Assembly: GCA_030065775.1 (NCBI GenBank)
Contig: JASJDL010000009.1
Location: 1 to 32,047, forward strand
Source of the DNA: Flavobacteriaceae bacterium
Lineage (GTDB): Bacteria; Bacteroidota; Bacteroidia; Flavobacteriales; Flavobacteriaceae
Length of the DNA stretch: 32,047 nucleotides
Reading direction: 5' to 3'
Shown here: one piece after another, positions 5,853-30,712 of the stretch
Numbering within the stretch: position 1 is the stretch's first letter
Layout: every line of letters starts with the position of its first letter
The notes under the pieces: model-generated
Databases searched by the model: none
Seen by the model: the letters and a program-made list of their open reading frames with translations, nothing else
Told to the model about the DNA's origin: nothing
Translations under genes and position numbers: made by a program

Positions 5853-5912
5853 TTGTTGTTTTTATTTTAATTGTTGATAATGGTTGATTCTTGGTGTTGG
5901 TTAATTTTTACT

Positions 5913-5943: not shown

Positions 5944-5985
5944 TTCAAACACGATGAACTGTCAGCTTTAAGTGATGAAATGTAA

Positions 5986-6444: not shown

Positions 6445-6500
6445 TGAAAATTTAGGTTCTAATTATTATGACGATTTTTTTGCTTTTAGGGTTTCAAAAA

Positions 6501-8288: not shown

Positions 8289-8626
8289 TTTTTTGCTGGT
8301 TTTTTGCTGGTTACAGTTTTTACGGCTCCAACGAGCTCACTCCAAGTTGTATTTAATTCTTTTAAAAATAATTTGCCTGTTTCGGTCAATGCATAATATT
8401 TGCGCGGTGGCCCGGATGTAGATTCTTCCCATCGGTAGCTCAACAAACCTGCATTTTTTAATCGTGTTAACAACGGATATACGGTGCCTTCGACCACGAG
8501 CAGCTTTGCATCTTTTAAATGCGAGAGAATTTCTGAAGTGTAGGCATCACCACCTTCTAAAATGGATAGGATGCAGAACTCTAAAACTCCCTTACGCATT
8601 TGCGCTTTTGTATTCTCTATCTTCAT
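8285..8626 (-). CDS. PadR family transcriptional regulator
   Basis: The 113-residue protein is a winged-helix DNA-binding protein of the short PadR type. It shows the hallmark N-terminal 'MRKGVLEFCILSILEGGDAY', the recognition region 'VVEGTVYPLLTRLKNAGLL', and the wing 'RWEESTSGPPRKYYALTETG', followed by a C-terminal helix for dimerisation. PadR proteins are usually repressors of adjacent genes. Here the stop overlaps the start of the PspC gene (ATGA), so it very likely controls its own operon with the PspC protein. A 5-bp inverted repeat (CGACG-AATA-CGTCG at 8666-8679) in its upstream region is a possible but weak operator. The inducing signal is unknown. Confidence 0.93.
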   Translation of the reverse strand: MKIENTKAQMRKGVLEFCILSILEGGDAYTSEILSHLKDAKLLVVEGTVYPLLTRLKNAGLLSYRWEESTSGPPRKYYALTETGKLFLKELNTTWSELVGAVKTVTSKKPAKK

Positions 8627-8766
8627 GATACTTGTACTTCTTTTTTAGGGTCTATAAAAATATGGCGACGAATACGTCGACTACATATAAAATTACTTCT
8701 GTTAGTATAGAAATCATAGCTGGGTTGATTTAGTCCGATCTCTGAGGGGTAATCAGCGATACAGAA

Positions 8767-9207
8767 TTATTTAATAAATTTTATGGTTAAAGGATAGCGA
8801 TACACTTCTCCTCTACTTGCTTTTATAGCCGCCACGATCACCAGGATAAATTTGATGAAACTGAGTACAGCTATTAGTGAACCTATGCTTAGTATTCCAA
8901 AAAGGTTATCAAAACCCCAATGGAAATGAAAATCAAAATGATCAAAATCGTCTACATGCCTTAAGTGATTAAAAAAAGAACCAATAGCAAATGGAAACAT
9001 GAACATTCCTAAAATTGTGACATACAATACATAACTAATATTGAAGTTCACGGCTTCTACACCGTTCTCATCCACATAGGCACTTCTGTCCTTATTAACT
9101 GACCATAATATAAGCGGCCCTAAAATGCTTCCAAATGGAAACACAAAACTAAAAAAGGATGATAAATGCGTTAAAAATGCCGTGTTCTTTTCTCTTTGTG
9201 TCAACAT
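8767..9207 (-). CDS. DUF4870 membrane protein with His/Asp-rich loop
   Basis: The 146-residue protein shows the DUF4870 (Tic20-like) pattern: a short N terminus (TQREKNTAFLTHLSSF), a first hydrophobic hairpin (FVFPFGSILGPLILWSV), the conserved 'VDENGVEAVNFNISYVLY', and further membrane segments ending in a short basic tail. Between membrane segments there is a loop, RHVDDFDHFDFHFHWGFDN (about residues 88-106), unusually dense in His and Asp, which could bind a metal. It lies upstream of padR with a 140-base gap on the same strand and has its own good promoter. DUF4870 genes commonly accompany PspC/PadR genes in this phylum. Its role is unknown. Confidence 0.85.
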   Translation of the reverse strand: MLTQREKNTAFLTHLSSFFSFVFPFGSILGPLILWSVNKDRSAYVDENGVEAVNFNISYVLYVTILGMFMFPFAIGSFFNHLRHVDDFDHFDFHFHWGFDNLFGILSIGSLIAVLSFIKFILVIVAAIKASRGEVYRYPLTIKFIK

Positions 9208-9432: not shown

Positions 9433-11469
9433 CTACTTTTTTCGCTCAAATGTATTTTTGTCAACACCTATTCCGGACATTTTTAGATACCTCCATCGCT
9501 TTGGCAATGAGGTGTCTAATTGCTTGATTCCTTCATCAGTAATATCTAACCCTCCAATACCAAATAGAACCGATTGCAACGTTCCTCCTGCCCCGGTAGC
9601 GAAATATGGATTGGTGCCACCGGCAGTTTCAGCCAAAACACCAAACGGAGGTACTTCGTTGGGTTGGTAACTTTTCTTAAAAAGTTCATAAGCTTTCTCC
9701 GCATCACCTAACCTTGCATACAGTACGGCTAAAATTGCACCACCCATAGCCGGACCATCTGGTGCCAGGCGTGGTTCATAATAGTTCAGGTCTTTACGGA
9801 TGTCTTCTTTTTGTGTCACAACTTTTAAGGGATACGCGAGTAGATTTACGTCGGCCTGCTTGATCATCACACCATCATACGTCTTATTTTCTTTTGTTGT
9901 GCCATCAGGAAATTTCAATATTGGAATATTCGCCGCTACATGATTCCAGTCAGCATTAGGGGTAAGGCCTAAAACTTTGGCAGCTTGAGAGGCGTACCCC
10001 AAGACCGTTTTTACCATACCATTCGTAAATGCATTGTTATCTATATTTTCCTCCCATTCATTGGCACCTATGACATTATTAATATCAAAACTACCTTCAC
10101 CGCTTCGTTCTACTCTACTTGACCAGAAATCTGCTACTTCTTTTAGCACAGGGTAGCCCCGGGTTCTTAGCCATTCTTTATCTTTTGTGACCTGATAGTA
10201 TTTCCAGAAGGCCCATCCTACTGTGGCAGATATATGCTGCTGAAATGGCCCAGTCAATGCCCATACCGGCGTATCTTCAGAACCGTCTTCTGCAGACTCC
10301 CATGGGTACATCGCTCCGTCATAGCCATGAGCAAATGCATTCTCCTGGGCGGCTCCTAAGCGTTCAAATCGATATTCTAATAACGACTTTGCAATCTCAG
10401 GTTGTAAAACCAAAAGTGGTGGGTACATCCATAATTCAGTGTCCCAAAAAACATGGCCATTATATCCTAAGCCAGATAAACCCATTGGTGATAAGGAGTA
10501 CGCCGTGCCCTTTCGTGCAAATGAATATAAATGATATATCGCAGATCGTACTGCGCGCTGTGATTCCAGGTCACCTTCAATTTCGATATCACTTTCCCAT
10601 AGGTCCTTCCAGGCCTTTTGATGTGCATTTAGCAATCTTTCTGTACCTTCAAGTTTTGCAAAAATTGTCAAGCGTTCTGCTTCATTATGCGGATCATTAT
10701 TATGAACCGAGGATAGTGTAGAACCCACCACGGCAAATCTGTACGTCTCCCCTTTTTTGAGTTTTCTTCGAAACTTCATAAGGTGCATGTTGTAATCCCA
10801 ATCTTCATGAATGATCTTGGGTTCATCGCCATGCTTTTCTGGAAAAATAAAAGAGGTACTTGTAGCAACTTTTTTCTTTCCGGGGCTGAAAGCCACCGAG
10901 CTCATTAAAGGTATCAACACATGAGGTCGGTCGATCTCTGAGTATAAATTTCTTACATCCGAAAGATGATTAGGGGCCTCTATATAATTTATCGGTGTTA
11001 TTTCTACATCTTTTTTCGCTTTTATTTCAATAACACTCATAGCGGTATATGGCAGATTTCTTAATGACATTAAATCCTGCTTCACTGAAACCGACTTACC
11101 GACATTATAGGTTGTCGTCAACATTGCTTTCTTCATGTCAAGGGTCTGCGCATAATCAGATATTTCTCTTCTACCAACTCTTTTTCCATCAACTTCAAGA
11201 TGCATATTCATATGACTGAAAGTTTTCAATATATTGCTTACACGTCCTCTCTGATAATAATCGTAAACACCATTAAGGACCACATCTTTAACTTTCATAG
11301 GTTCAGGTGAAGACACCAGGCCTACCATACCGTTGGCGACGGTGATACCATAATAATTCGCAGGGTCAATATTGGAGGCTTGAATATGCCAGGGAGACTT
11401 GGAAAGGTCTTGTGCAACTAAAAAATTCGTAAAGGTAAAAATAACGAGGATGGTTACTACTTTTTTCAT
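9433..11469 (-). CDS. Secreted glycoside hydrolase family 65 (alpha-glucosidase type)
   Basis: With the start at 11469 the product is 678 residues with a clear Sec signal (MKKVVTILVIFTFTNFLVAQ); an upstream in-frame ATG at 11535 would bury it. GH65 features are the beta-sandwich N-terminal domain, the (alpha/alpha)6 segment GYNGHVFWDTELWMYPPLL (from 335), HGYDGAMYPWES (381-392) and the general-acid motif GANEWEENIDNNAFTN with Glu471. GH65 phosphorylases carry a phosphate-binding loop near the C terminus. Here that region reads LAETAGGTNPYFATGAGG, with Glu614 in the position expected of a general base. The Flavobacterium johnsoniae enzyme FjGH65A, an inverting alpha-1,2-glucosidase (kojibiose hydrolase), has from memory the acid at 472 and base at 616, an almost identical layout. 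I therefore infer a periplasmic hydrolase. Its substrate here may be different. It is divergent from the GH32 operon. Confidence 0.9.
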   Translation of the reverse strand: MKKVVTILVIFTFTNFLVAQDLSKSPWHIQASNIDPANYYGITVANGMVGLVSSPEPMKVKDVVLNGVYDYYQRGRVSNILKTFSHMNMHLEVDGKRVGRREISDYAQTLDMKKAMLTTTYNVGKSVSVKQDLMSLRNLPYTAMSVIEIKAKKDVEITPINYIEAPNHLSDVRNLYSEIDRPHVLIPLMSSVAFSPGKKKVATSTSFIFPEKHGDEPKIIHEDWDYNMHLMKFRRKLKKGETYRFAVVGSTLSSVHNNDPHNEAERLTIFAKLEGTERLLNAHQKAWKDLWESDIEIEGDLESQRAVRSAIYHLYSFARKGTAYSLSPMGLSGLGYNGHVFWDTELWMYPPLLVLQPEIAKSLLEYRFERLGAAQENAFAHGYDGAMYPWESAEDGSEDTPVWALTGPFQQHISATVGWAFWKYYQVTKDKEWLRTRGYPVLKEVADFWSSRVERSGEGSFDINNVIGANEWEENIDNNAFTNGMVKTVLGYASQAAKVLGLTPNADWNHVAANIPILKFPDGTTKENKTYDGVMIKQADVNLLAYPLKVVTQKEDIRKDLNYYEPRLAPDGPAMGGAILAVLYARLGDAEKAYELFKKSYQPNEVPPFGVLAETAGGTNPYFATGAGGTLQSVLFGIGGLDITDEGIKQLDTSLPKRWRYLKMSGIGVDKNTFERKK

Positions 11470-11487
11470 AATTAAGAGATTAGTAGG

Positions 11488-11495
11488 CAAATATA
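11488..11495 (-). promoter_or_regulatory. Candidate -7 box of the GH65 gene
   Basis: TATATTTG on the minus strand matches TAnnTTTG and lies 18 bases upstream of the chosen GH65 ATG, predicting a leader of about 12 bases. No clear TTG at -33. The 84-base divergent region 11470-11553 must also hold the start signals of the GH32 operon, where I see no good box. Confidence 0.4.
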
Positions 11496-11553
11496 AATAA
11501 GAAATATGAACCTTATTTTTTTTACTTTTATCCATTCCTGTAAAATTCTAATC

Positions 11554-13125
11554 ATGATACGAAGTATGTTTTTGCTGACGTTTTCGGGGTTGTTGCTATA
11601 TTCATGTACAGAAAAAAAAGAAATCAAGAAGCTTGATAAAGCGCTTGAAGTAAATGAAAGAATCAGTTATAATGAAAGTTACAGACCTCAGTATCATTTT
11701 TCTCCCACAGAGAAGTGGATGAATGATCCAAATGGACTGGTATATCACAAAGGTGTTTATCATTTGTTCTATCAACACTATCCGGAAGACATCGTATGGG
11801 GCCCCATGCACTGGGGGCATGCAATTAGTAACGACTTGATTTCATGGGGGCACAAACCTATTGCGCTATATCCTGATAAACATGGATTAATTTTTTCCGG
11901 TAGCGCTGTCGTTGATAAAAAGAACAGCTCTGGCTTTGGAAGCCTAGAAAATCCTCCCATGGTCGCAATCTTTACCTATCATTTAATGGAAGGTGAAAAA
12001 GCAGGCAGAACTGATTTCCAGACGCAAGGTATAGCTTACAGCTTAGATAATGGTAACACCTGGAAGAAATATGAAAACAACCCGGTTATCGGAAATCCCG
12101 GTATTAAAGACTTTAGAGATCCTAAGGTATTCTGGCATGAGGAATCTAATCAATGGATCATGGCCTTAGTAGCTGGAGATCATGTAAAGTTTTATAATTC
12201 AGAAAATCTAAAAGAGTGGAATTACCTAAGTGATTTCGGCAAAGGCAAAGGCGCCCATGGAGGTGTCTGGGAATGCCCCGACCTGTTTACATTAAAGTCT
12301 GAAAACAGTGATGACGAAAAGTGGGTGCTGCTAGTAAGTATTAACCCAGGAGCCCCCAATGGTGGTTCTGGAACACAATACTTTATTGGAGATTTTGACG
12401 GAAAGACATTCAGAGTTGAACATGATGACGTCAAGTGGTTAGATTATGGTATGGACAATTACGCAGGTATCACCTATAATAACGAACCCAATAATGATCG
12501 TGTCTTTATCGGGTGGATGAGTAATTGGAATTATGCCAGAAATACACCAACTGAGGTTTGGCGTAGTGCCATGACACTACCAAGAAAATTAACATTGACG
12601 AAAGAAGGGTCCGATTATTACGTTAAAGGTAATCCAATAGAGGCTATTGGGCAACTCATTGAAAAATCTGAAGATAACGAAATTATGAGGGTTGCCAACG
12701 AATCGAAATGGATTCTGGAGAAAGATTTTCTAAACGAATCTAAGATTTCATTTACCGCCGATTCGTTACACCATATTGAAATACAATTGACAAATAATAG
12801 CAATGATGCACTTCTTTTGGGAATCGATCCTGAAAAAAATGTAGCTTATATTGACAGAACAAAGTGTGGAAAAACCGGTTTCGAAAAAAGTTTTGCAGCA
12901 GCACGTCATGTGATGCCTCTAAAAATTAGGGACAGCGAAATTTCGATAGAAATTTATCTAGATAGATCGTCTGTCGAGTTTTTTATCAATAATGGTCGCT
13001 ATGTAATGACCAATCAGATTTTTCCAAATGAACCACTTACGTCTATTTCTGTTAGTGGCGATCAGAAACAAGGTATTCGCAATTTCAAGATAGAGCAAAT
13101 TAAATCGATTTGGAATGAAAAGTAA
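11554..13125 (+). CDS. GH32 lipoprotein, fructan/sucrose beta-fructosidase
   Basis: Starting at 11554 gives a 523-residue lipoprotein (signal ends LLYSC, Cys18). An ATG at 11506 would add 16 residues before the signal. All GH32 catalytic motifs are intact: WMNDPNG (55-61) with the nucleophile Asp58, the RDP motif (188-190) with transition-state stabiliser Asp189, and WEC (239-241) with acid/base Glu240. The C-terminal beta-sandwich is present (DRSSVEFFINNGRYVMT). The family splits beta-D-fructofuranosides (sucrose, inulin, levan). No additional carbohydrate-binding domain is seen, which fits an exo-acting enzyme. The lipid anchor puts it in the periplasm or at the cell surface, where it would release fructose for the MFS transporter encoded next. 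The stop overlaps the transporter start by 11 bp. Confidence 0.95.
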   Translation: MIRSMFLLTFSGLLLYSCTEKKEIKKLDKALEVNERISYNESYRPQYHFSPTEKWMNDPNGLVYHKGVYHLFYQHYPEDIVWGPMHWGHAISNDLISWGHKPIALYPDKHGLIFSGSAVVDKKNSSGFGSLENPPMVAIFTYHLMEGEKAGRTDFQTQGIAYSLDNGNTWKKYENNPVIGNPGIKDFRDPKVFWHEESNQWIMALVAGDHVKFYNSENLKEWNYLSDFGKGKGAHGGVWECPDLFTLKSENSDDEKWVLLVSINPGAPNGGSGTQYFIGDFDGKTFRVEHDDVKWLDYGMDNYAGITYNNEPNNDRVFIGWMSNWNYARNTPTEVWRSAMTLPRKLTLTKEGSDYYVKGNPIEAIGQLIEKSEDNEIMRVANESKWILEKDFLNESKISFTADSLHHIEIQLTNNSNDALLLGIDPEKNVAYIDRTKCGKTGFEKSFAAARHVMPLKIRDSEISIEIYLDRSSVEFFINNGRYVMTNQIFPNEPLTSISVSGDQKQGIRNFKIEQIKSIWNEK

Positions 13126-14461
13126 AACACTTTATTGGTCAATCACGGTTGCCTTGGCAGGATTTTTATTCGGTTTTGATACCGTGGTGATTTCGGGCGC
13201 CAATCAACCCATAAAAGAATTATGGAATACCTCGCCTTTATTTCATGGTACCTTTATTATGTCTATGGCACTTTGGGGAACGGTGTTCGGCGCACTTTTC
13301 GGAGGGCTCCCTTGTGATAGATTCGGAAGAAAAAAAACATTGATTTGGATCGGTATCCTGTACCTGCTATCGGCATTAGGTTCAGCCTTTGCTCCGGATC
13401 CATATACCTTTTCTTTCTTTCGATTTATTGGCGGACTGGGTGTTGGGGCCTCTTCAGTAGCTGCCCCAATTTATATCTCAGAAATCTCATCTGCTGAAAA
13501 GCGGGGAAGATTAGTAGCGCTATACCAATTTAATATCGTCTTCGGAATTTTTATAGCCTTCATTTCTAATTATTTATTAAAAGGTGTTGGAGGTAGCAAT
13601 GATTGGCGATTGATGTTAGGTGTGGAAGCCATTCCTGCCCTTGCCTATTCCTTGATGGTATTGACCGTTCCCAACAGTCCGAGGTGGCTGGCACTCAAAA
13701 AAAGAAATGATGAGGACGCAAAACAGGTATTAAACTTAATATATACGAAACAAAAAGCGCTTGAAAAACTGGCCGAAATAAAAGAAGATTTAGTCAATAA
13801 TCTTAAAGGTGAACGCCTGTTTCAGAAAAAATTTAGCCGTGTGATTTGGTTGGGATTCCTAATCGCATTTTTCAACCAGCTTTCGGGTATCAATTTTGTA
13901 CTGTACTATGCCCCTGAAATTTTAGAGCGATCAGGCCTGGCAGCAAAAGAATCTTTGTTCAGTTCAATTTCCATTGGCGTTGTGAACTTAGTTTTCACCT
14001 TCGTAGGTTTATGGCTGATTGACCGATTAGGAAGAAAACAACTCATTATTATTGGGTCAATTGGATATATTATTAGCCTCGCCATGGTAGGCTGGTCTTT
14101 CTACAGTGGCGCCAGTTCTGGTTTATTACTGTCCTTTATTTTGCTTTTCATAGCGTCTCATGCGATAGGGCAAGGCGCAGTTATTTGGGTTTTTATCTCT
14201 GAAATTTTCCCAAACAACGTAAGAGCTTATGGACAGTCTTTAGGTACCGGAACCCATTGGGTTTTTGCGGCAATAATCACATTAATCACACCTTTATTTC
14301 TAGATAATGATAAAGGAATATTTGCTGAAAATCCTTGGCCAATATTTGTGTTTTTTTCATTTATGATGATACTTCAGTTAATCTGGGCTTTAACCAAGAT
14401 GCCAGAGACAAAAGGCATTTCATTAGAAAAATTAGAAAAACAATTAGTTAAAAATGAATGA
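13115..14461 (+). CDS. MFS sugar porter, probable fructose (or hexose) importer
   Basis: The 448-residue protein has about 12 membrane segments and the signatures of the sugar porter family (TC 2.A.1.1). These are GFDTVVISGA in helix 1 (20-29), DRFGRKK (68-74) between helices 2 and 3, RFIGGLGVG (103-111), VPNSPRWL (185-192; Asn replaces the more usual Glu), QLSGIN (255-260), the second-half DRLGRK (303-308) and PETKG (430-434). Such proteins import monosaccharides with protons across the inner membrane. Between an exported GH32 and a fructokinase, with overlaps of 11 bp and 8 bp, fructose is the most likely substrate. Its position resembles that of the inner-membrane monosaccharide importer in the B. 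thetaiotaomicron fructan locus. Confidence 0.93.
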   Translation: MKSKTLYWSITVALAGFLFGFDTVVISGANQPIKELWNTSPLFHGTFIMSMALWGTVFGALFGGLPCDRFGRKKTLIWIGILYLLSALGSAFAPDPYTFSFFRFIGGLGVGASSVAAPIYISEISSAEKRGRLVALYQFNIVFGIFIAFISNYLLKGVGGSNDWRLMLGVEAIPALAYSLMVLTVPNSPRWLALKKRNDEDAKQVLNLIYTKQKALEKLAEIKEDLVNNLKGERLFQKKFSRVIWLGFLIAFFNQLSGINFVLYYAPEILERSGLAAKESLFSSISIGVVNLVFTFVGLWLIDRLGRKQLIIIGSIGYIISLAMVGWSFYSGASSGLLLSFILLFIASHAIGQGAVIWVFISEIFPNNVRAYGQSLGTGTHWVFAAIITLITPLFLDNDKGIFAENPWPIFVFFSFMMILQLIWALTKMPETKGISLEKLEKQLVKNE

Positions 14462-15353
14462 TAATCAATCGCTTACCGCCGTATGCTATGGTGAAGTATT
14501 GTGGGATGTTTTTCCTGATCACAAAACCATTGGTGGCGCTCCTTTAAACGTAGCTTTACGTCTAAAATCACTTGGTATAGATACCGCTGTTATCACAAGA
14601 ATTGGTACTGATTCGAATGGTAAAGCGTTAACCGACTATCTTTCAGCCAATGGATTAGATTTATTTAATGTGCAAATTGATAACGAGCATAAAACCGGGA
14701 TCGTGAACGTTGCTTTAAACAATAGCGGTTCTGCCAGCTATGAAATTGAATATCCGGTAGCCTGGGATAAAATTCAATTGACAGAAAGGGCTGTAGAATT
14801 AGTAAAAACATCAGATACTTTTGTTTTTGGAAGTTTGGCTTGTCGTGATAAAATTTCAAAAAATACGCTACTTGAATTACTAGAGTTCGCAAAATTTAAG
14901 GTTTTTGATGTGAATCTTCGCCCACCACATTACTCCTATGAGCTATTATTAGAACTCATGCACAAGGCAGATTTTATAAAGTTAAACGATGAAGAACTAC
15001 TGGAAATCTGCAACCATATGGGTATTTCGGCATCTAACTTAAAAAATAGGATGCAACTTTTGTCGAAGAGAACAAATTCGCGCATTATTTGTTTGACAAA
15101 AGGCAAAAATGGTGCAGCATTATTGGTTGATGGTAGTTATTACGAAAATCAGGGTTATAAGGTTACTGTTGAAGATACCGTTGGAGCAGGTGATTCATTT
15201 TTAGCAACCCTAATTGCAAAACTACTGCAGAAATCGACTCCGGAAATTGCCTTAAATCATGCTTGTGTGGTTGGAGCTCTTGTGGCATCTAAAAAAGGTG
15301 CAAATCCAAAAATTAGCTTGACGGATATTGAGCGAGCAATGTCAAAACAGTGA
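14454..15353 (+). CDS. PfkB family fructokinase
   Basis: The 299-residue cytoplasmic kinase transfers phosphate from ATP to a sugar, here most likely fructose to fructose 6-phosphate. It shows GEVLWDVFPD (13-22), the substrate-binding GGAPLNVA (27-34), typical of bacterial fructokinases, DVNLRPP (152-158), KLNDEE (176-181) and the C-terminal PfkB signature DTVGAGDSF (241-249) with catalytic base Asp247. The length matches the family. It is the third gene of a tightly overlapping GH32-transporter-kinase set, so the encoded steps run from release, through import, to phosphorylation. No hairpin terminator is visible after it. Confidence 0.93.
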   Translation: MNDNQSLTAVCYGEVLWDVFPDHKTIGGAPLNVALRLKSLGIDTAVITRIGTDSNGKALTDYLSANGLDLFNVQIDNEHKTGIVNVALNNSGSASYEIEYPVAWDKIQLTERAVELVKTSDTFVFGSLACRDKISKNTLLELLEFAKFKVFDVNLRPPHYSYELLLELMHKADFIKLNDEELLEICNHMGISASNLKNRMQLLSKRTNSRIICLTKGKNGAALLVDGSYYENQGYKVTVEDTVGAGDSFLATLIAKLLQKSTPEIALNHACVVGALVASKKGANPKISLTDIERAMSKQ

Positions 15354-15597: not shown

Positions 15598-18594
15598 ATG
15601 AAAGTTAAATTACGCATGCATTTGCTGGCATTATTATGTTTTGCATTATGCTCCAGTGCACTTATTGCACAACAAACCGTAACCGGTACGGTTACAGGTG
15701 AAGACGGACCACTACCCGGTGTAAGCGTCGTTATTAAAGGAACATCTCAGGGTACTGAGACAGATTTTGATGGGCTTTACACCCTCAATAATGTTCCATC
15801 AGACGCTACGTTGGTGTTTAGCTTTATCGGTTACAGAACTACCGAAATAGCAGTTGATGGTAGGTCTCAAATTGATGTGACTCTGGAAGTGGATGCCCAG
15901 GCCTTAGACGAAGTAGTCGTCGTAGGTTACGGTTCTACTACCCGTAAGGAGGTAACAACGGCTGTTACGTCTGTGAGTACGGAAGACTTCAACCAGGGTG
16001 TAATTCAGGAACCTACGCAATTACTGCAAGGTAAGGTAGCCGGTTTGACCATCTACAATAAAGGTGGGGACCCGAATACAGCGGCCACAGTCCGTTTAAG
16101 AGGTCTTTCAACTGTCGGAGGTAACACAGAGCCATTAGTTGTCATTGATGGTGTTCTTGGTCAATCGTTGAGTAATGTTGACCCGGCAGATATTGAAAAC
16201 ATTACCGTTTTAAAGGATGGTTCTGCGGCTGCAATTTATGGTACTCGAGGTTCGAGTGGTGTAATCCTGGTAACTACAAAATCGGGTAAAAGCGGACAAC
16301 CATTCACTGTAAATTATAATGGACAATTCTCTACGGCTTCGATTGCAAATGAAATTGATATTATGAATAGAGATGAGTTTTTGGCCGTTGGAGGTACTGA
16401 CTTAGGAAGTGACACAGACTGGAGAGATGAGGTGACGCGTACCGCCTTTACGCAAGTGCACAATATTGCTGCTATTGGTGGTAGTGATGATGCCAACTAT
16501 CGAGTTTCACTAAATTACAGGGATACAGAAGGTATTTTAGAAAATTCAGGGTTTGAGCAGGTCAACGTGAGAGCGAAATTATCTGGTAAAATTTTAAACG
16601 ATAAATTAAAAATCGATTTTAATTCTGCTTTGACACAACGTGATAGTGACTTTGGATTCAATGAAGCCCTACGTTATGCTGTGTTGTACAACCCAACTGC
16701 CCCAATCTTCGGAGCTGATGCACCTTTCGCATTTAATTCAGATCAATTCGGTGGTTATTTTGAAACGTTAGGTTTATTTGACAGTTTTAACCCTGTTTCA
16801 ATCGCAGAGCAAAATAGAAATACGGGGGCGAGAAGCATTCTAAATTACAGTGTTGATTTAAGATACAACTTCTCGGATGAGTTGTCTGCCCAATTGAGCA
16901 TAGGTCAGCAAAATGAAAAAAATAGAAACAGAGAATACTATCCTACTACTGCCTTCTTTAGAGGAAATGCCTTAAGTCCGTTTAGAAAAGGTTTGGCGCG
17001 ATTCTTTAGCAACGAAATTGAGAATACAACATTAGAATTATTCGGAACCTGGAATAAAACGTTCAGTGATACATTCACACTAAAACTAACCGGTGGTTAT
17101 TCTTGGCAGGAGACAGATTACAATGAGTACTTCTTATCATTAGGTGACTTCCCTCCTGGTGTTAACTTTAACTTTGATGACGCCATCGAAGTCTCACAGG
17201 ATTTGTTAGAAGCAGGACGTGTTCAGGCGAATAGCGGAAGAAATGATGATGACAGAATTATAGCATTCTTTGCGCGTGCTAACGCAACCATAGACGATGC
17301 TATCTATTTGAATGCTTCGGTGAGACGTGAAGGGTCTACAAGATTTGGTTCTGAAAATCAGTGGGGTGTATTCCCTGCCTTCGCAGTGGGTGCCGACTTA
17401 AATAAGTATTTGGAATTAGACAATGTAAACCTGCTTAAGGTAAGACTAGGTTATGGGGTTACTGGTGCAATTCCACCTCAGCAAGGTCTTGCTCAAACAA
17501 CCTTCAATGTGAGTAACGGTTCGAACGGATTCGGATCAGCGTCCACAGGTTTAGGAAGTAGGGCTCCGAATCCCGATTTACAGTGGGAAGAAAAAAGAGA
17601 ATTGAACCTAGGGTTTGAATTTGCTACAGACCGCTTCTCCGCGACACTAGATTTATATAATAGAGACATCGTTGATTTCATTCAATTGGTGAACGTAGAC
17701 GCCGCAGTATTTGGTTTTTCAACACAATGGCAAAATGCGGGTGAGTTAAATACCCAGGGTATAGAGCTGACAGCAAATTATGATCTAGTCAAAAATGATA
17801 AAGTCACCTATAATACAGGTATTGTATTTAACACTTATACCACAAAACTAGAAAAGAATGTTGGTGGTGATAGAACAACAGGTAATTTAGGAGCTCCAGG
17901 CCAGAATGATACGAACGTAATTCTTGTAAGAGAAGGGCAAGAAGTCGGTCAGATTTGGGGACCGGTATTCACAGGTGAGGTTGATGGAGACGGAACTCCA
18001 ATTTTGGCAGACCTCAACGGAGATGGCGTCTTGGTCACTGATCAAGGTAGTGCCTTAGCCGATGATGCTGACTTTGCTGTATTAGGTAAAGGTTTCCCAG
18101 ATTTTGAAATTGGATGGACGAATCAGGTTACTATAGGTAATTGGGATATCAATGCCTTCTTTAGAGGTGCGTTTGGACATAGTTTAGTAAACGCGTTCCG
18201 TGCGTTTTATGAGCCCAGAATTGGATCGCAGTCATCGTATAACTTTATAAATACTGATTTGGCGAGAGATGATATAAGAACAGCGCAATTTAGTTCCTAC
18301 TATGTTGAGAAAGCTGACTTCTTTAGACTAGATAACTTGTCTGTGGGATATAATTTTGATATTAACAATAGTTATATCAAGAACATTAGAGTATCTCTTG
18401 CAGGTCAAAATGTATTTACGATTACAGATTATACCGGTGCAGATCCTGAGCCAGCTTTACAAGATTTTGGTTCGCTCGATAATGCAGGATTTCTCGATAG
18501 AACAAATCCGGATGTGTTAGCACCAGGTATTGACAGACGTTACAACTACTTTGCGTCTCGTACGTTTACGCTTGGTGTAAATATTAACTTTTAA
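15598..18594 (+). CDS. susC: SusC-like TonB-dependent outer-membrane transporter
   Basis: The 998-residue protein is a SusC/RagA family TonB-dependent transporter that imports oligosaccharides through the outer membrane together with its SusD partner. In order: a signal peptide (about 1-24), a CarboxypepD-regulatory-like domain (about 26-105, with TVTGTVTGEDGPLPGVSVVI), the 'DEVVVVGYGS' segment (104-113) typical of the SusC junction before the plug, the plug domain with VRLRGLSTVGGNTEPLVVID and the 'VLKDGSAAAIYGTRGSSGVI' signature, then a long beta-barrel ending in ...TLGVNINF with the terminal Phe. It is followed after 17 bases by susD. Regulatory repeats lie in the 244-base region upstream. 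Substrate specificity is inferred from the adjacent fructose genes, not from SusC itself. Confidence 0.96.
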   Translation: MKVKLRMHLLALLCFALCSSALIAQQTVTGTVTGEDGPLPGVSVVIKGTSQGTETDFDGLYTLNNVPSDATLVFSFIGYRTTEIAVDGRSQIDVTLEVDAQALDEVVVVGYGSTTRKEVTTAVTSVSTEDFNQGVIQEPTQLLQGKVAGLTIYNKGGDPNTAATVRLRGLSTVGGNTEPLVVIDGVLGQSLSNVDPADIENITVLKDGSAAAIYGTRGSSGVILVTTKSGKSGQPFTVNYNGQFSTASIANEIDIMNRDEFLAVGGTDLGSDTDWRDEVTRTAFTQVHNIAAIGGSDDANYRVSLNYRDTEGILENSGFEQVNVRAKLSGKILNDKLKIDFNSALTQRDSDFGFNEALRYAVLYNPTAPIFGADAPFAFNSDQFGGYFETLGLFDSFNPVSIAEQNRNTGARSILNYSVDLRYNFSDELSAQLSIGQQNEKNRNREYYPTTAFFRGNALSPFRKGLARFFSNEIENTTLELFGTWNKTFSDTFTLKLTGGYSWQETDYNEYFLSLGDFPPGVNFNFDDAIEVSQDLLEAGRVQANSGRNDDDRIIAFFARANATIDDAIYLNASVRREGSTRFGSENQWGVFPAFAVGADLNKYLELDNVNLLKVRLGYGVTGAIPPQQGLAQTTFNVSNGSNGFGSASTGLGSRAPNPDLQWEEKRELNLGFEFATDRFSATLDLYNRDIVDFIQLVNVDAAVFGFSTQWQNAGELNTQGIELTANYDLVKNDKVTYNTGIVFNTYTTKLEKNVGGDRTTGNLGAPGQNDTNVILVREGQEVGQIWGPVFTGEVDGDGTPILADLNGDGVLVTDQGSALADDADFAVLGKGFPDFEIGWTNQVTIGNWDINAFFRGAFGHSLVNAFRAFYEPRIGSQSSYNFINTDLARDDIRTAQFSSYYVEKADFFRLDNLSVGYNFDINNSYIKNIRVSLAGQNVFTITDYTGADPEPALQDFGSLDNAGFLDRTNPDVLAPGIDRRYNYFASRTFTLGVNINF

Positions 18595-24143: not shown

Positions 24144-27100
24144 ATGACCTATACTAGACTGATAATTGCTCTTTTAATTGTAGTGAACTTTTCTTGTAAC
24201 AAAGCTCAAGACGAACCTTCTCCAGAAATGTTTAAACTGTTGGACACCTCGGAAACCGGGATCAATTTTCTCAATGAACTTAGTTATAGCGATCAATTCA
24301 ACGTATATAAGTATCGAAATTTTTACAATGGCGGAGGTGTGGCGATTGGTGATATAAATAATGACAGTCTACCCGATCTTTACTTTACAGCCAATCAATC
24401 AAAGAATAGGCTTTACTTAAACAAAGGGAACTTCAAGTTTGAAGATATAACAGACAACTCTAAAACAGCTGGAACCAAGCCCTGGTCTACCGGGGTCTCT
24501 ATGGTCGATATTAATGCCGATGGCTTACTGGACATTTATGTTTGCAATTCTGGTGATATTAATGGAGAGAATAAACAAAATGAACTGTTTATTAATAACG
24601 GTGACCTTACCTTTACTGAAGCAGCAGCAGCATATAATTTAGATGATAAGGGTTTTTCAACACATGCTTCTTTTTTTGACTTTGATAAAGATGGTGATCT
24701 CGATGTCTATATTTTAAATAATTCCTATCAAGCAATTGGCAGCTTTGACCTCAGAAGAAATGAACGGCCTAAAAGAGACCTTTTAGGTGGTGATAAATTA
24801 ATGGAAAATGTTGATGGCAAATTTATAGACATCAGTGAAAAAGCAGGTATCTACGGTAGCGTGGTAGGTTTTGGTCTGGGAGTAACTGTTGGTGATGTTA
24901 ATAATGACGGATGGGAAGATATTTACATCTCCAATGATTTTTTTGAACGAGATTACCTGTATATCAATAATCAGAACGGAACATTCTCAGAGCAACTTGA
25001 AAACCAAATTGCGGCCACAAGTGCGGCCTCGATGGGCGCTGATATGGCGGACATCAATAATGATGGTTATAATGATATTTTTGTAACTGATATGCTACCA
25101 TCTGAATATCAACGTCTTAAAACAGTTACAACATTTGAAGACTGGAACAAATATCAATTAAAGGTCACTAATGGCTACCACCATCAATTCACAAGAAATA
25201 CGCTTCAGTTGAACAACGGCAATAATTCCTTTAGCGAAATAAGTAGATTGAGCGGTGTTGCGGCTTCAGATTGGAGCTGGGGTGCCTTATTCTTTGATAT
25301 GGACAATGATGGTCTCAAAGACCTTTATATCGCTAATGGAATCTACAAAGACCTTACCGATCAAGATTACCTGCAATATATCTCTAATGAAGAAGTCATT
25401 AAATCAATCGTGGCGAATGATAAAGTTGACTACAAACGACTGATCGATATCATCCCATCAAGAAAAGTAAAGAACCATGCATATAAAAACCAGGGAAACT
25501 TACAGTTCGACGTATATGAGGAATCAGGACTATGGACTGAGAGCTTTTCAAATGGCGCCGCTTATGGTGATTTAGATAATGACGGTGACCTCGATCTGGT
25601 AGTTAACAATTTGAATATGGAATCATTTGTTTATGAAAATACTTCTGACCAAAGAAAAAATTCAAATTATATCAAATTAGTATTACAAGGTGAAGGTAAA
25701 AATACAGGCGCTATAGGTGCCAAAGTGGAGGTTCAAAATTCAAATATTAGTGTTGAAAATCAACCTGCAAGAGGTTTTCAGTCCAGCATGGATCCACGAA
25801 TAAATATTGGCATTCCAACGAATGATCCTGTAAATCTAAAAATCACATGGCCATCAGAAAAAGTATCTTTCCTGAATAATATTCAAGTGAATCAAACGAT
25901 CTACCTAAGTGAAAAAGACGCAAAACTTGTGCAACCTGAAGATCGAGATTATAAGACGCCTATCTTCAAGAAAAATTCCCTTAAAATAGATTACAAACAC
26001 CAGGAAAATATCTTTGTAGACTTCCATAGAGATCGTTTACTCAATCATATGTGTAGTACAGAAGGACCAAAACTTTCGATGGCAGATCTAAACAATGACG
26101 GGTTTGAAGAGCTCTTTATTGGAGGTTCTAAGGGAAACCCTGCTCAATTATTTCAAGGAAATGCCACCGGGTTTTCTGAAGTAAGCTCAAGTACTTTTAT
26201 CAAAAATAGCAATTCAGAAGATAGCTCCAGCCTCTTCTTTGATGCTGATGGCGATGGTGATTTAGACCTCTACGTTTGCAGTGGTGGTGTAGAATACTCG
26301 CAATTTGCGGTTGAATTTTTAGACCGGCTTTATATAAACAATGGTGCGGGTGACTTTACCCTCTCTGATCAAAAGCTACCTTCTTTGAATTCATACCATA
26401 GTACTTCAACTGTCACTGCTTCTGATATAGACAATGATGGTGATCTTGATTTATTTGTGGGAGAACGCATTGTCCCATTAAAATACGGGGTTCCAGGTTC
26501 AGGATTCATTTTAGAAAATAATGGTAAGGGTATTTTTACAAACGTTACAGATACCAAAGCCAAAGACCTGATTGATTTAGGAATGATTACCGATGCAACT
26601 TTTGAAGATATAGATAAAGATGGAGATGAAGACCTGATGATTATTGGTGAGTTCATGGGAATTGAGCTTTTTATAAATGATAAAGGCTCATTCAAAAAAC
26701 AAGTTGACAATCCCATTTCTAACTTAAAAGGATGGTGGAATACAATTCATAAATCAGATCTCGATAATGATGGTGATCTTGACTTTATACTAGGAAATCA
26801 TGGGTTGAACAGCAGATTTAAAGCCAGTAATGAAAAGCCTATAACCCTGTATTCGGGCGACTTCGACAACAATGGCTTCATTGACCCCATCCTGACATTC
26901 AGAGCAGTCAATAATAAAGATTATCCTTATGCATTACGGCATAATTTAATCGATCAGATCAAATCTTTAAAAAAGAAATTTCCTGATTATCAGTCGTTCA
27001 AAAATTCTGATATAACCCAAATGTTTGATGAAAAGCAACTTCAGAATAGTAAGGCCTTAGAGGCCAATACGCTTTCTTCAATAATTTTAATTAATAAAGG

Positions 27101-27422
27101 CAATCTGGATTTCGAGGTCAAAGAGCTTCCTTTAGAAGCACAGCTCTCCCCTGTCTATGCCATTGTTACCGATGATTTTGACGGTGATGGCGATCAGGAT
27201 ATAGTTCTTGGCGGAAATCTTTACAGCGTGAAACCCGAAGTCGGTAGATATGATGCCAGTCATGGGGTATATCTTGAAAACCTAGGACAATTCCGTTTTA
27301 AAAATCACAGAGGCGGTAATGGTTTTTCTATAACCGGCGAAGTAAGAGACATAATAATAGATGATAAAAAACTTATTATATCCAGAAACAGGGATTCACT
27401 GGCCATATTTAACTATAAATAG
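24144..27422 (+). CDS. FG-GAP/VCBS repeat lipoprotein with ASPIC/UnbV domain (paralogue 2)
   Basis: The 1092-residue lipoprotein (Cys18 after VNFS) has the same layout as paralogue 1. After the conserved opening FYNGGGVAIGDINND come FG-GAP loops DINADGLLD, DFDKDGDLD, DVNNDGWED, DMDNDGLKD and DLDNDGDLD, an ASPIC/UnbV domain at about 505-590 (TGAIGAKVEV, GFQSSMDPRINIG), then DADGDGDLD, DIDNDGDLD, DIDKDGDED and DFDGDGDQD. Its ASPIC domain lacks the usual 'WPDG' (WPSEK instead). Some stretches are also identical at DNA level with paralogue 1 (21 bases at 24927-24947 and 21065-21085, encoding ISNDFFE), which supports duplication. It starts 12 bases after the small lipoprotein gene and ends one base before paralogue 3. 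Confidence 0.9.
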   Translation: MTYTRLIIALLIVVNFSCNKAQDEPSPEMFKLLDTSETGINFLNELSYSDQFNVYKYRNFYNGGGVAIGDINNDSLPDLYFTANQSKNRLYLNKGNFKFEDITDNSKTAGTKPWSTGVSMVDINADGLLDIYVCNSGDINGENKQNELFINNGDLTFTEAAAAYNLDDKGFSTHASFFDFDKDGDLDVYILNNSYQAIGSFDLRRNERPKRDLLGGDKLMENVDGKFIDISEKAGIYGSVVGFGLGVTVGDVNNDGWEDIYISNDFFERDYLYINNQNGTFSEQLENQIAATSAASMGADMADINNDGYNDIFVTDMLPSEYQRLKTVTTFEDWNKYQLKVTNGYHHQFTRNTLQLNNGNNSFSEISRLSGVAASDWSWGALFFDMDNDGLKDLYIANGIYKDLTDQDYLQYISNEEVIKSIVANDKVDYKRLIDIIPSRKVKNHAYKNQGNLQFDVYEESGLWTESFSNGAAYGDLDNDGDLDLVVNNLNMESFVYENTSDQRKNSNYIKLVLQGEGKNTGAIGAKVEVQNSNISVENQPARGFQSSMDPRINIGIPTNDPVNLKITWPSEKVSFLNNIQVNQTIYLSEKDAKLVQPEDRDYKTPIFKKNSLKIDYKHQENIFVDFHRDRLLNHMCSTEGPKLSMADLNNDGFEELFIGGSKGNPAQLFQGNATGFSEVSSSTFIKNSNSEDSSSLFFDADGDGDLDLYVCSGGVEYSQFAVEFLDRLYINNGAGDFTLSDQKLPSLNSYHSTSTVTASDIDNDGDLDLFVGERIVPLKYGVPGSGFILENNGKGIFTNVTDTKAKDLIDLGMITDATFEDIDKDGDEDLMIIGEFMGIELFINDKGSFKKQVDNPISNLKGWWNTIHKSDLDNDGDLDFILGNHGLNSRFKASNEKPITLYSGDFDNNGFIDPILTFRAVNNKDYPYALRHNLIDQIKSLKKKFPDYQSFKNSDITQMFDEKQLQNSKALEANTLSSIILINKGNLDFEVKELPLEAQLSPVYAIVTDDFDGDGDQDIVLGGNLYSVKPEVGRYDASHGVYLENLGQFRFKNHRGGNGFSITGEVRDIIIDDKKLIISRNRDSLAIFNYK

Positions 27423-27423
27423 C

Positions 27424-30400
27424 ATGCGTAATAGTTATACGTTCTTAGTTGCAGCGGTTGTCATATGTATCTTCTCATGTTCGAAAAAAACCTCCGGACC
27501 TCCGGTTGAAAAGGCTGCAATTTATTTTGAATCACTCCCTGCCGACAGCACCGGCATCCACTTTTCAAATGACCTGTTTTTTAAAGATGATTTGAACATA
27601 ATAGAATTTCTGTATTACTATAATGGCGGCGGTGTCGCCGTAGGGGATATCAATAATGATGGCTTAGACGACATTTACTTCACTTCAAACATGACTAGCG
27701 ATAAGCTGTATTTGAATCTCGGTAATTTTAAGTTCAAAGATATTACTCAAGTCGCAGGTATTTCAACCGATTCAACATGGTCTACAGGTGTCACTATGGA
27801 AGATATCAATAATGATGGATTACTTGATATTTATGTTTCGAAAGTTGGTAATTATAAAGACCTACAAACCAACAATAGGCTCTATATTAATAATGGTGAT
27901 CGAACATTTTCTGAACAAGCATCATCTTATGGCTTAGATTTTTCAGGATTCTCGACGCAGGCCTCTTTTTTTGACTATGATAATGATGGCGATATGGATA
28001 TGTACCTCTTGAATCATGCGGTGCACACCCCAAGAAGTTATGGTGATATTAGAATGCGAAAGGTGAAAGACAGCCTTTCAGGCGATCGACTTTATGAAAA
28101 TAAATTGAATGAAGGTCTGTCGAAATTTCAAGACGTCACCGAATCTGCCGGAATCTATTCCAGCGCTTTAGGTTATGGACTCGCATTAATTACTTCAGAT
28201 GTCAATAAAGATGGATTCATTGATATTTATGTAGGTAATGATTTTCATGAGAATGACTACTTATACATCAATCAGGGAAACGGGTCTTTTCAGGAAGCTA
28301 TCTCCGAATATATAGATCATACGACACGTTTTACTATGGGTATCGATATTTCAGACATTAACAATGATTCAAGACCAGATATTTTTACACTCGATATGAT
28401 GCCTTATGATAAAGAAATATTGCTAAAGTCTAGTGGCGAAGACTCCGATAAGGTAAGTCAGATCAAAAAGAATTTTGGTTTTGAAATGCAATATGCAAGA
28501 AATACCTTGCAAATTCAACGTGAGGATAATTCGTTTGCCGAGTTGGCGCTTATGACAGATACCTATGCTACCGACTGGAGTTGGTCTACACTGATTCAGG
28601 ATTTTGATAATGATGGATTCAAAGATATTTATGTTACAAATGGTATTTACAAAAGACCTAATGATTTAAACTATATCAATTTCCTGAGTAATACAAACTT
28701 CGCCAAATATGATCAAACGAAGCAAAATGAGCTCGAAAAAAAATTGATTGACGAAATGCCTACCATAAATTTGCCGAATAATATTTTTAAGAATAATGGA
28801 AATCTGGGCTTTGAAAGATTGACTGAGAACGCCGGTCAAATCCCGTCCTACTCCAACGGTGCTGCATACAGTGATTTTGATAATGACGGTGATATCGATT
28901 TGGTGGTTAACAATATTAATCAAAAAGCTTTTATTCTAAAAAATGAAAGTGAAAATGTTCAGCAGAATAGTCATGTAGCCCTGGACCTCAAAGGCAATTC
29001 GTTGCTTAAAAATACAAACGGATCAAAAGTTTACCTATATGCCGGTGATCAAGAATATTACCAGGAACTTACGAGTACAAAAGGATACCAATCGAGTTCA
29101 ACACATAAGGTACATATGGGTCTGGGAACTACTTCACAAATTGACTCGGTAAAAATAGTTTGGTTGGATGGTACAGAACAAATTGAGAAACAAGTAAAGA
29201 TCAACCAATTAAATGCGATAGAAAAAAGCTCTGATGCAAGACCAACCTATAGAACAGCTTTCAAAACAGAGAACGAAGCAGAAAGATTTCCCTTTGTACA
29301 TATAGAAAATAATTATATCGATTATGAAAATGAACCGCTGGTTCCTGAAAAACTCTCCACAGAAGGACCTTGTGCTGTATCGGCTGATTTTAATAAAGAT
29401 GGTTTACAGGATTTATTTATTGGAAATGCCAGGTACCAGACACCTGTTCTTTATTTGAAACAACCTAATGGAGACTTCAAAAAACACGTTCAAGATGTTT
29501 TTATCAAAGATGCAATTTATGAAGATGTAGACGTCGAGGTATTTGATATTGAAAATGACGGCGACCTTGACTTATATGTAATGAGTGGTGGTGGTGATAA
29601 GGTAGAAAACGATGCCTATTTAGAAGACCGAATATATATCAATGATGGTCAAGCGAACTTTACAAGGCTAATGAAGCCCTTAATAAAAACCAATGGTGGC
29701 AGTGTTAGCGCTGGAGATTTTGATGGCGACGGCTTTGACGATCTTTTTATCGCCAATCGATCGATTCCCGGGGGCTATGGATTATCACCCTACAGCTACA
29801 TACTTAAAAATAACCAAAACGGTACATTCATTATGGTAAATAAAGTGCCTTTAGGTATGATAACAGATAGCCAATGGATTGATATTAATGGTGATCAACT
29901 ACTTGATTTAGTTGTGGTTGGCGATTGGATGCCTGTCACAGTACTAGTCAATAAAGGTGATCTTAAATTCGAAAATGCCACTAAAGAACTTGGTCTGGAA
30001 AAATCTTCGGGTATGTGGAATGCGGTTGTGGTGCATGATATTGACGCTGATGGAAGACCAGATATCATCGCCGGAAACGCAGGCCTCAATTTGAAATGGA
30101 AAGCATCAAAAGAAAGACCAATAAAACTCTATTTGGACGATTTTGATAATAACCAACAAGTTGACCCCATCATATTCCATGATTTTTATGGTGCGTATGT
30201 TCCCTTTGCTTCTAGAGATCATCTCGTAAGCCAAATGCCTTCACTGAAGAAGAAGTTTTTAAGTTACACCGAATTTGCTAAAATCAAAACTATAGAAGAT
30301 TTGGTGGGCAGTAGTGAAGAAAATATCTTAGAAGTGAAAGAAATCAATGAATTACGTTCTATGGTATATTTAAATACCAATGCCGGGTTTAAAGAACAAC

Positions 30401-30693
30401 CTTTGCCGTTTGAAGCACAACGAAGCTCCATCGAAGATATCGCTATCCATGAAAATGAAAATCAAGAAAGTAAACTCATTTACGTTGGGAACTTTAGAGG
30501 ATATATTAATGAATTAGGACAGAATACCGCAAATTCAGGTGGGGTCTTAACCATAAATAACGGTGCGATTCATCAGGTTATAGACTTGAATGTACCTTCC
30601 AATCTGAACACCAGAAAAATAGTTAAATTAGATAAAAATAGATACCTGGTTCTTGCCAATAACGATAAATCTTATATTTTTGAAACTAATTAA
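27424..30693 (+). CDS. FG-GAP/VCBS repeat lipoprotein with ASPIC/UnbV domain (paralogue 3)
   Basis: The 1089-residue lipoprotein (Cys19 in IFSC) starts at 27424, one base after the previous stop; an in-frame ATG at 27361 would lie inside the previous gene and hide the signal. It keeps the shared frame (YYNGGGVAVGDINND, ATDWSWSTLIQDFDNDG, YSNGAAYSDFDNDGDID) but is more diverged: NDFFE is replaced by NDFHEN, and one segment contains EDSDKVSQIKKNFGFEM. The ASPIC domain is at about 515-600 (GYQSSSTHKVHMGLG, IVWLDG). The second propeller has DIENDGDLD, DFDGDGFDD and DIDADGRPD. The divergence suggests a separate ligand or an older duplication. It is followed after 19 bases by the haloperoxidase-like gene. 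Confidence 0.9.
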   Translation: MRNSYTFLVAAVVICIFSCSKKTSGPPVEKAAIYFESLPADSTGIHFSNDLFFKDDLNIIEFLYYYNGGGVAVGDINNDGLDDIYFTSNMTSDKLYLNLGNFKFKDITQVAGISTDSTWSTGVTMEDINNDGLLDIYVSKVGNYKDLQTNNRLYINNGDRTFSEQASSYGLDFSGFSTQASFFDYDNDGDMDMYLLNHAVHTPRSYGDIRMRKVKDSLSGDRLYENKLNEGLSKFQDVTESAGIYSSALGYGLALITSDVNKDGFIDIYVGNDFHENDYLYINQGNGSFQEAISEYIDHTTRFTMGIDISDINNDSRPDIFTLDMMPYDKEILLKSSGEDSDKVSQIKKNFGFEMQYARNTLQIQREDNSFAELALMTDTYATDWSWSTLIQDFDNDGFKDIYVTNGIYKRPNDLNYINFLSNTNFAKYDQTKQNELEKKLIDEMPTINLPNNIFKNNGNLGFERLTENAGQIPSYSNGAAYSDFDNDGDIDLVVNNINQKAFILKNESENVQQNSHVALDLKGNSLLKNTNGSKVYLYAGDQEYYQELTSTKGYQSSSTHKVHMGLGTTSQIDSVKIVWLDGTEQIEKQVKINQLNAIEKSSDARPTYRTAFKTENEAERFPFVHIENNYIDYENEPLVPEKLSTEGPCAVSADFNKDGLQDLFIGNARYQTPVLYLKQPNGDFKKHVQDVFIKDAIYEDVDVEVFDIENDGDLDLYVMSGGGDKVENDAYLEDRIYINDGQANFTRLMKPLIKTNGGSVSAGDFDGDGFDDLFIANRSIPGGYGLSPYSYILKNNQNGTFIMVNKVPLGMITDSQWIDINGDQLLDLVVVGDWMPVTVLVNKGDLKFENATKELGLEKSSGMWNAVVVHDIDADGRPDIIAGNAGLNLKWKASKERPIKLYLDDFDNNQQVDPIIFHDFYGAYVPFASRDHLVSQMPSLKKKFLSYTEFAKIKTIEDLVGSSEENILEVKEINELRSMVYLNTNAGFKEQPLPFEAQRSSIEDIAIHENENQESKLIYVGNFRGYINELGQNTANSGGVLTINNGAIHQVIDLNVPSNLNTRKIVKLDKNRYLVLANNDKSYIFETN

Positions 30694-30712
30694 TAATCAG
30701 AAAGAACGTATT

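What the first reader, a model, noticed from the sequence alone, without database searches (positions are those of the whole stretch)
9433..11469. Bacterial GH65 with hydrolase-type catalytic pair, divergent from a fructan operon
Most bacterial GH65 enzymes are phosphorylases. Here Glu471 (GANEWEENIDNNAFTN) and Glu614 (LAETAGG) match the acid and base of FjGH65A almost position for position, and a signal peptide exports the protein away from cytoplasmic phosphate pools. Its pairing with GH32 suggests the natural substrate carries both alpha-glucosyl and beta-fructosyl units, such as glucosylated sucrose derivatives, instead of plain kojibiose.
Basis: partly seen in the sequence, partly recalled or inferred. 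Interest (0 to 1): 0.55.

Follow-up and report, generated by a model that had tools for sequence, protein, structure and literature searches.

The report
Kojibiose hydrolase beside sucrose-splitting PUL
The gene encodes an already known kind of exported enzyme that clips alpha-1,2-linked glucose, and its repeated placement beside sucrose- and trehalose-splitting genes in one uptake cluster suggests these bacteria eat glucose-extended sucroses made by cyanobacteria, a diet for which we found no described pathway.

Summary
ORF 9433-11469 (-) is a GH65 hydrolase, not a phosphorylase: it passes NCBIfam's kojibiose hydrolase equivalog (1118 bits, cut-off 800), is 52% identical to FjGH65A, and has all eight published FjGH65A catalytic and subsite +1/+2 residues. 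The enzyme is an ordinary new member of a known kind (EC 3.2.1.216).

The setting is more interesting. GH65 is divergent from GH32-MFS-fructokinase, followed by SusC-SusD, three FG-GAP/ASPIC lipoproteins and a vanadium haloperoxidase. GH65 lies in one cluster with GH32 in six other genomes, on two GH65 clades (six changes on the tree), about 12 times the chance density. GH66 dextranase, which marks the known dextran role of FjGH65A, is absent here and unlinked elsewhere. The commoner partners of GH65 are ASPIC, haloperoxidase and GH37 trehalase, so GH32 is one recurrent partner, not the defining one.

The best-fitting substrate is alpha-1,2-glucosylsucrose, the "sucroglucans" of Anabaena/Nostoc: GH65 strips the alpha-1,2 glucoses and GH32 splits the sucrose. 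Erlose and sucrose are not expected GH65 substrates.

The parts
9433..11469 (-). GH65 kojibiose-type alpha-1,2-glucosidase (678 aa); acid Glu471 (codon 11057-11059), base Glu614 (codon 9628-9630); +1/+2 subsite residues Arg74, Trp390, Glu391, Thr406, Glu474, Lys537
   Evidence: NF053734 1118 bits; 7fe3 792 bits; residue table; Foldseek best hit 7fe3, TM 0.90
11410..11469 (-). probable Sec signal peptide (MKKVVTILVIFTFTNFLVA/QD), export to the periplasm
   Evidence: hydropathy only; sequence inspection
11470..11553 (.). divergent intergenic region shared by GH65 and GH32 (84 bp if GH32 starts at the ATG at 11554); holds TATATTTG on the minus strand, matching the Bacteroidota -7 consensus TAnnTTTG recalled from memory, with no clear -33 box
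   Evidence: sequence; promoter not tested
11506..13125 (+). GH32 beta-fructofuranosidase/exo-inulinase-like lipoprotein (lipobox LLLYSC; likely start 11554)
   Evidence: Pfam PF00251 328 bits; nearest solved relatives exo-inulinases 8i12, 1y4w and invertases
13115..14461 (+). MFS sugar porter; overlaps the GH32 gene
   Evidence: TIGR00879 348 bits, cut-off 238
14454..15353 (+). PfkB-family kinase, likely fructokinase; overlaps the MFS gene
   Evidence: PF00294 149 bits; best NCBIfam fructokinase PRK09434, below its cut-off
15598..18594 (+). SusC-like TonB-dependent transporter
   Evidence: TIGR04056 636 bits
18612..20231 (+). SusD-like binding lipoprotein
   Evidence: PF07980
20258..23551 (+). 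FG-GAP/ASPIC-UnbV protein 1 (CRTAC1-like beta-propeller)
   Evidence: PF13517, PF07593
23517..24131 (+). small protein without Pfam match (H4), found between ASPIC 1 and 2 in other copies of the cluster
24144..27422 (+). FG-GAP/ASPIC-UnbV protein 2
27361..30693 (+). FG-GAP/ASPIC-UnbV protein 3
30653..32038 (+). vanadium-dependent haloperoxidase (PAP2 superfamily) lipoprotein, last gene on the contig
   Evidence: 521 bits to 4cit, listed as vanadium-dependent haloperoxidase; K...RP, SGH and R...H motifs present

Best explanation
The gene encodes a periplasmic, inverting GH65 alpha-1,2-glucosidase (kojibiose hydrolase). Glu471 protonates the alpha-1,2 bond and Glu614 activates water, releasing free glucose from the non-reducing end of an alpha-1,2-glucoside (family and mechanism shown by homology; export inferred from the N-terminus). 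It works inside a SusCD/ASPIC uptake locus with GH32, a sugar porter and a PfkB kinase, and in relatives with GH37 trehalase, GH13 and GH97 (gene linkage shown; cooperation inferred). The most likely natural substrate is the alpha-1,2-glucosylsucrose series of cyanobacteria, Glc-a1,2-(Glc-a1,2)n-b-Fruf. SusCD would import it, GH65 would strip glucoses down to sucrose, GH32 would cut the fructosyl bond before or after, MFS would bring the monosaccharides in, and PfkB would phosphorylate fructose (all inferred).
For: Equivalog match 1118 bits; 7fe3 the top sequence and fold hit; all eight FjGH65A catalytic and subsite residues conserved (residues from PMC10316084). GH32 in the same cluster as GH65 in the window, G050, G219, G582, G655, G544 and L080, six changes on the GH65 tree; four GH32 within 10 kb in 68 other genomes against 0.34 expected. 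G050 and G219 repeat the order GH65 <> (MFS, GH32), PfkB, SusC, SusD, three ASPIC, haloperoxidase, and continue to GH37; G544 holds GH13, GH32, GH37, SusCD, ASPIC, GH65 and haloperoxidase together. GH66 dextranase occurs in 2 of 36 carriers and is never linked. A natural substrate with exactly this linkage exists: glucosylsucrose/sucroglucan (PMC9909042; PMC4390839; PMC4390843). Structure argument (inference): in the FjGH65A-isomaltose complex the +1 glucose is joined through its C1 to a +2 sugar that points to solvent, the geometry glucosylsucrose would need.
Against: No assay, expression or growth data. Most GH65 copies of this family have no GH32 within 10 kb (4 of 116 loci do, many truncated). 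Once related genomes are collapsed, the enrichment of GH32 is only marginal (P about 0.05). The window enzyme's pocket is that of FjGH65A, so nothing in the protein itself points to fructose at +2. In the clade-F enzymes that share the GH32 context, Arg74 and Glu475 are lost, so not all these GH65 need have one substrate. GH32 could serve plain sucrose or fructan beside an unrelated kojibioside. No link to cyanobacteria was tested.
Confidence: 0.45

Rival explanations
1. General osmolyte locus: the cluster takes up a mixture of small non-reducing sugars (sucrose through GH32, trehalose through GH37, alpha-glucans through GH13/GH97), and GH65 clears kojibiose and other alpha-1,2-glucosides as separate compounds. 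No single molecule carries both units.
For: GH37 trehalase is a commoner neighbour of GH65 than GH32 (16 against 4 of 116 loci); GH32, GH37, GH13 and GH97 vary independently between loci.
Against: Kojibiose alone is a rare sugar; six changes of the GH32 neighbour on the tree suggest more than coincidence.
Confidence: 0.3
2. Branched-dextran enzyme as in Flavobacterium johnsoniae: GH65 removes alpha-1,2 branches from isomalto-oligosaccharides of lactic acid bacterial dextran.
For: FjGH65A, the characterised relative, does this (PMC10316084); all its +1/+2 ligands are conserved in the window.
Against: No GH66 in the window genome (80% complete) and only 2 unlinked cases in 36 carriers; no GH31 in the window; GH32, PfkB and ASPIC have no place in a dextran pathway.
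Confidence: 0.08
3. Chance neighbours: GH65 and the GH32-MFS-PfkB sucrose cassette are independent modules that share only an intergenic region; GH65 acts on whatever alpha-1,2-glucoside is present.
For: The GH32-MFS-PfkB trio occurs without GH65 beside it in G255 and G051; close GH65 relatives such as L040 stand alone.
Against: The divergent layout recurs in G050, G219, G582 and G655, with GH65 of a distant clade (G050's 46% identical to the window's), about 12 times the density expected.
Confidence: 0.13
4. The natural substrate is another alpha-1,2-glucoside such as 2-O-alpha-glucosylglycerol or a glucosyl-galactosyl glycan like that of collagen (human PGGHG is a GH65 relative).
For: GH65 holds a 2-O-alpha-glucosylglycerol phosphorylase and PGGHG, both fold neighbours.
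Against: Pocket residues are those of FjGH65A; a GH32 partner is unexplained.
Confidence: 0.04

Closest known systems
FjGH65A, kojibiose hydrolase of Flavobacterium johnsoniae (EC 3.2.1.216; PDB 7fe3)
   Same: 52% identical over 658 columns, same fold (TM 0.90), same acid/base and all published +1/+2 residues, exported
   Different: FjGH65A sits in a dextran locus with GH66, GH31 and GH97; here the neighbours are GH32, MFS, PfkB, SusCD, ASPIC proteins and a haloperoxidase
MmGH, kojibiose hydrolase of Mucilaginibacter mallensis
   Same: same family by description; [quoted passage not shown]
   Different: its sequence was not compared here
GH65 kojibiose phosphorylase (3wiq) and 2-O-alpha-glucosylglycerol phosphorylase (4ktp)
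   Same: GH65 fold and alpha-1,2 specificity
   Different: phosphate-dependent enzymes of about 760 aa; 20-24% identical in the fold alignment
Human PGGHG (9sd4-9sd8)
   Same: GH65 hydrolase acting on an alpha-1,2-glucosyl bond; its Glu430/Glu574 are the residues mutated in the PDB entries
   Different: 26-28% identical; substrate is glucosylgalactosyl-hydroxylysine of collagen
Bacteroidota GH32 sucrose/fructan loci (GH32, MFS, PfkB, SusCD)
   Same: same cassette of beta-fructosidase, sugar porter, kinase and SusCD
   Different: an added GH65, three ASPIC/FG-GAP proteins and a haloperoxidase; no endo-fructanase in the window

Membership tests
GH65 kojibiose hydrolase (EC 3.2.1.216, NF053734) | score above the NCBIfam equivalog cut-off of 800 bits | tested here: met
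   1117.9 bits
GH65 kojibiose hydrolase (EC 3.2.1.216, NF053734) | general acid and general base glutamates (FjGH65A Glu472, Glu616) | tested here: met
   Glu471 and Glu614
GH65 kojibiose hydrolase (EC 3.2.1.216, NF053734) | subsite +1/+2 ligands Arg74, Trp391, Glu392, Thr407, Glu475, Lys538 | tested here: met
   all six conserved
GH65 kojibiose hydrolase (EC 3.2.1.216, NF053734) | phosphate-independent hydrolysis of kojibiose | not testable with these tools
   needs an assay
GH65 kojibiose hydrolase (EC 3.2.1.216, NF053734) | export signal | tested here: inconclusive
   hydropathy and cleavage-site pattern fit; no signal-peptide predictor was available
GH65 phosphorylase | phosphate site in place of a general-base glutamate, length about 750-770 aa, match to the phosphorylase-type profile above its cut-off | tested here: not met
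   678 aa, base Glu614 present, PRK13807 211 bits against a cut-off of 838
Branched-dextran utilisation locus (FjDexUL type) | GH66 dextranase linked to GH65 | tested here: not met
   no GH66 in the own genome, which is 80% complete
Branched-dextran utilisation locus (FjDexUL type) | linked GH31 and GH97 | tested here: not met
   none among the Pfam-scanned genes from GH65 to the contig end at 32047
SusCD polysaccharide utilisation locus | adjacent SusC and SusD with carbohydrate-active enzymes | tested here: met
   SusC 15598-18594, SusD 18612-20231, GH32, GH65
Glucosylsucrose (sucroglucan) utilisation locus | induction by, import of and growth on alpha-1,2-glucosylsucrose | not testable with these tools
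   hypothesis from enzyme set and linkage only

The most novel reading that the evidence does not exclude
A recurrent Bacteroidota uptake locus (SusCD, three FG-GAP/ASPIC lipoproteins, vanadium haloperoxidase, GH65 with GH32 and/or GH37) is dedicated to glucose-extended non-reducing osmolytes of cyanobacteria. It would be the first described heterotrophic route for glucosylsucroses, with two GH65 clades filling the same slot and differing in their +1/+2 pocket.
Probability: 0.3. Interest if true: 0.68.

Novelty: new variant of a known kind. Interest (0 to 1): 0.45.

Why it matters
Glucosylsucroses are compatible solutes of Anabaena/Nostoc and other cyanobacteria, made under salt and heat stress; PMC9909042 estimates a global production of 1.5 to 3 billion tons a year. 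Their synthase was identified only recently, and the paper searches here returned no degradation pathway. If the locus acts on them, it joins a cyanobacterial product to its bacterial consumers, gives the kojibiose hydrolase family a natural role besides branched dextran, and gives a testable setting for the conserved but unexplained ASPIC/FG-GAP proteins and vanadium haloperoxidase.

Tried and rejected
Phosphorylase reading: rejected (base glutamate, length, profile scores). Dextran reading: GH66 sought in 36 carriers and found unlinked in two. 'Fructan operon': no endo-fructanase in the window, so the broader SusCD locus is preferred. Erlose or sucrose as GH65 substrates: rejected from the published MmGH specificity. 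Residue mapping was first done with the crystal-construct numbering, off by three, and corrected. A literature search for ASPIC + SusD + FG-GAP found nothing, for haloperoxidase + SusD only an Arenibacter genome note, and for GH65 + GH37 + GH32 + SusD + kojibiose (at least four of the five) only a Gramella genome comparison. A link of the haloperoxidase to glucose oxidation, suggested by glucose-dependent iodine uptake in Arenibacter, was considered and not pursued: no glucose oxidase gene was recognised in the window by Pfam. Whole-genome download was not available. The AlphaFold model rested on seven sequences and has low confidence around the active-site loops (mean pLDDT 73), so it was used for fold comparison only.

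Full report
WHAT IS THERE. The ORF at 9433-11469 (minus strand) encodes 678 aa with GH65 N-terminal and central domains. It matches NCBIfam NF053734, kojibiose hydrolase, at 1118 bits against a cut-off of 800, while the generic GH65 profile PRK13807 gives 211 bits against 838. The nearest solved protein is FjGH65A (7fe3, 792 bits), then human PGGHG and kojibiose phosphorylase. A model made from seven relatives (mean pLDDT 73) has 7fe3 as its top PDB match (TM 0.90, 52% identity). It is the only GH65 found in this genome.

ACTIVE SITE. The window enzyme has Arg74, Trp390, Glu391, Thr406, Glu471, Glu474, Lys537 and Glu614. [quoted passage not shown] Kojibiose should therefore be a good substrate here, and erlose or sucrose poor ones.

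NEIGHBOURHOOD. Divergent from GH65 lie GH32, an MFS sugar porter and a PfkB kinase with overlapping reading frames, then SusC, SusD, three FG-GAP/ASPIC proteins with a small protein between the first two, and a PAP2 protein that is 521 bits from the solved vanadium haloperoxidase 4cit. The contig ends there. The GH32 carries a lipobox and its nearest solved relatives are exo-inulinases and invertases.

OTHER GENOMES. Eighty GH65 loci from named genomes and 36 Flavobacteriaceae carriers, the window's genome included, were read for neighbours. Within 10 kb of GH65, ASPIC proteins occur in 39 of 116 loci, the haloperoxidase in 33, SusD in 16, GH37 trehalase in 16 and GH32 in 4, many loci being truncated. 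G050 and G219 repeat the window's layout, GH65 divergent from MFS, GH32, PfkB, SusC, SusD, three ASPIC proteins and a haloperoxidase, and continue to GH97 or GH13, further transporters and GH37. A phylum-wide sample added G582 and G655 (GH65 and GH32 divergent and adjacent, SusCD and ASPIC following GH65) and G544 (GH13, GH32, GH37, SusCD, ASPIC, GH65 and haloperoxidase within about 25 kb). The Saprospiraceae locus L080 has ASPIC, GH65, MFS, GH37, GH32, PfkB and MFS.

IS THE GH32 LINK MORE THAN CHANCE? In 68 carrier genomes other than the window's own, four have GH32 within 10 kb of GH65 against 0.34 expected from the density of GH32 (P = 4e-4); if the two pairs of relatives are each counted once, P is about 0.05. 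On the GH65 tree the GH32 neighbour needs six changes. The link is recurrent but not general, and GH65 is more often beside ASPIC proteins, the haloperoxidase or GH37.

TWO CLADES. The tree separates a clade with the FjGH65A pocket (window, FjGH65A and all 80 named-genome loci) from a Flavobacteriaceae clade in which Arg74 is replaced and nearly all have lost Glu475 (P, Q, H or A), although the base and the other ligands remain. GH65 of the second clade fills the same place beside GH32 and SusCD in G050, G219, G582 and G655. They pass the kojibiose hydrolase cut-off but I know of no characterised member, and they may differ in acceptor.

SUBSTRATE. Dextran is unlikely: GH66 was found in 2 of 36 carriers and never linked. 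A compound that needs exactly GH65 plus GH32 is known: cyanobacterial glucosylsucrose, Glc-a1,2-(Glc-a1,2)n-b-Fruf (PMC9909042; Fischer et al. 2006 cited in PMC4390839), also called sucroglucan (PMC4390843). In the FjGH65A-isomaltose complex the +1 glucose is joined through C1 to a +2 sugar that points to solvent; a +2 fructose attached in the same way should fit. This is inference. Cyanobacteria also make sucrose and trehalose, for which GH32 and the recurrent GH37 would serve. I put about 0.4 on glucosylsucrose as the natural substrate of the window locus, about 0.95 on hydrolytic alpha-1,2 specificity, and about 0.75 on functional cooperation with the GH32 locus.

VERDICT. The enzyme itself is a new member of a known family. 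The locus, as a recurrent combination of GH65, GH32 and/or GH37 with SusCD, ASPIC proteins and a vanadium haloperoxidase, was not found described in the paper searches made here, which cover open-licence papers only.

Noticed in passing
30653-32038: A vanadium-dependent haloperoxidase closely related to the solved 4cit enzyme (521 bits) is part of the SusCD/ASPIC/GH65 cluster, and such a gene lies within 10 kb of GH65 in 33 of 116 loci. Why a haloperoxidase travels with glucoside hydrolases is unexplained.
   Followed up: partly
20258-30693: Three tandem FG-GAP/ASPIC (CRTAC1-like) proteins of about 1100 aa, the commonest neighbours of kojibiose hydrolase across Bacteroidota; possibly surface binding proteins, function unknown.
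   Followed up: partly
L161:8946-10976, L034:9739-11814, L180:9756-11759: A second clade of GH65 above the kojibiose hydrolase cut-off that lacks Arg74 and Glu475 of FjGH65A; the family name may be misapplied to it.
   Followed up: partly
L034:11867-12886, L161:7838-8857, L146:11101-12123: In clade-F loci a LacI-family regulator sits next to GH65; the window has none nearby.
   Followed up: no
L178:6697-9423 (G000:C88): The window genome's only GH37 trehalase lies on another contig beside an MFS transporter of the kind that accompanies GH37 in G219 and G050.
   Followed up: partly
4328-9207: Minus-strand run with DUF2807, DUF4440, a 595-aa multi-helix membrane protein, a 113-aa PadR-like regulator and a small membrane protein, apparently an envelope-stress cluster unrelated to the finding.
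   Followed up: no
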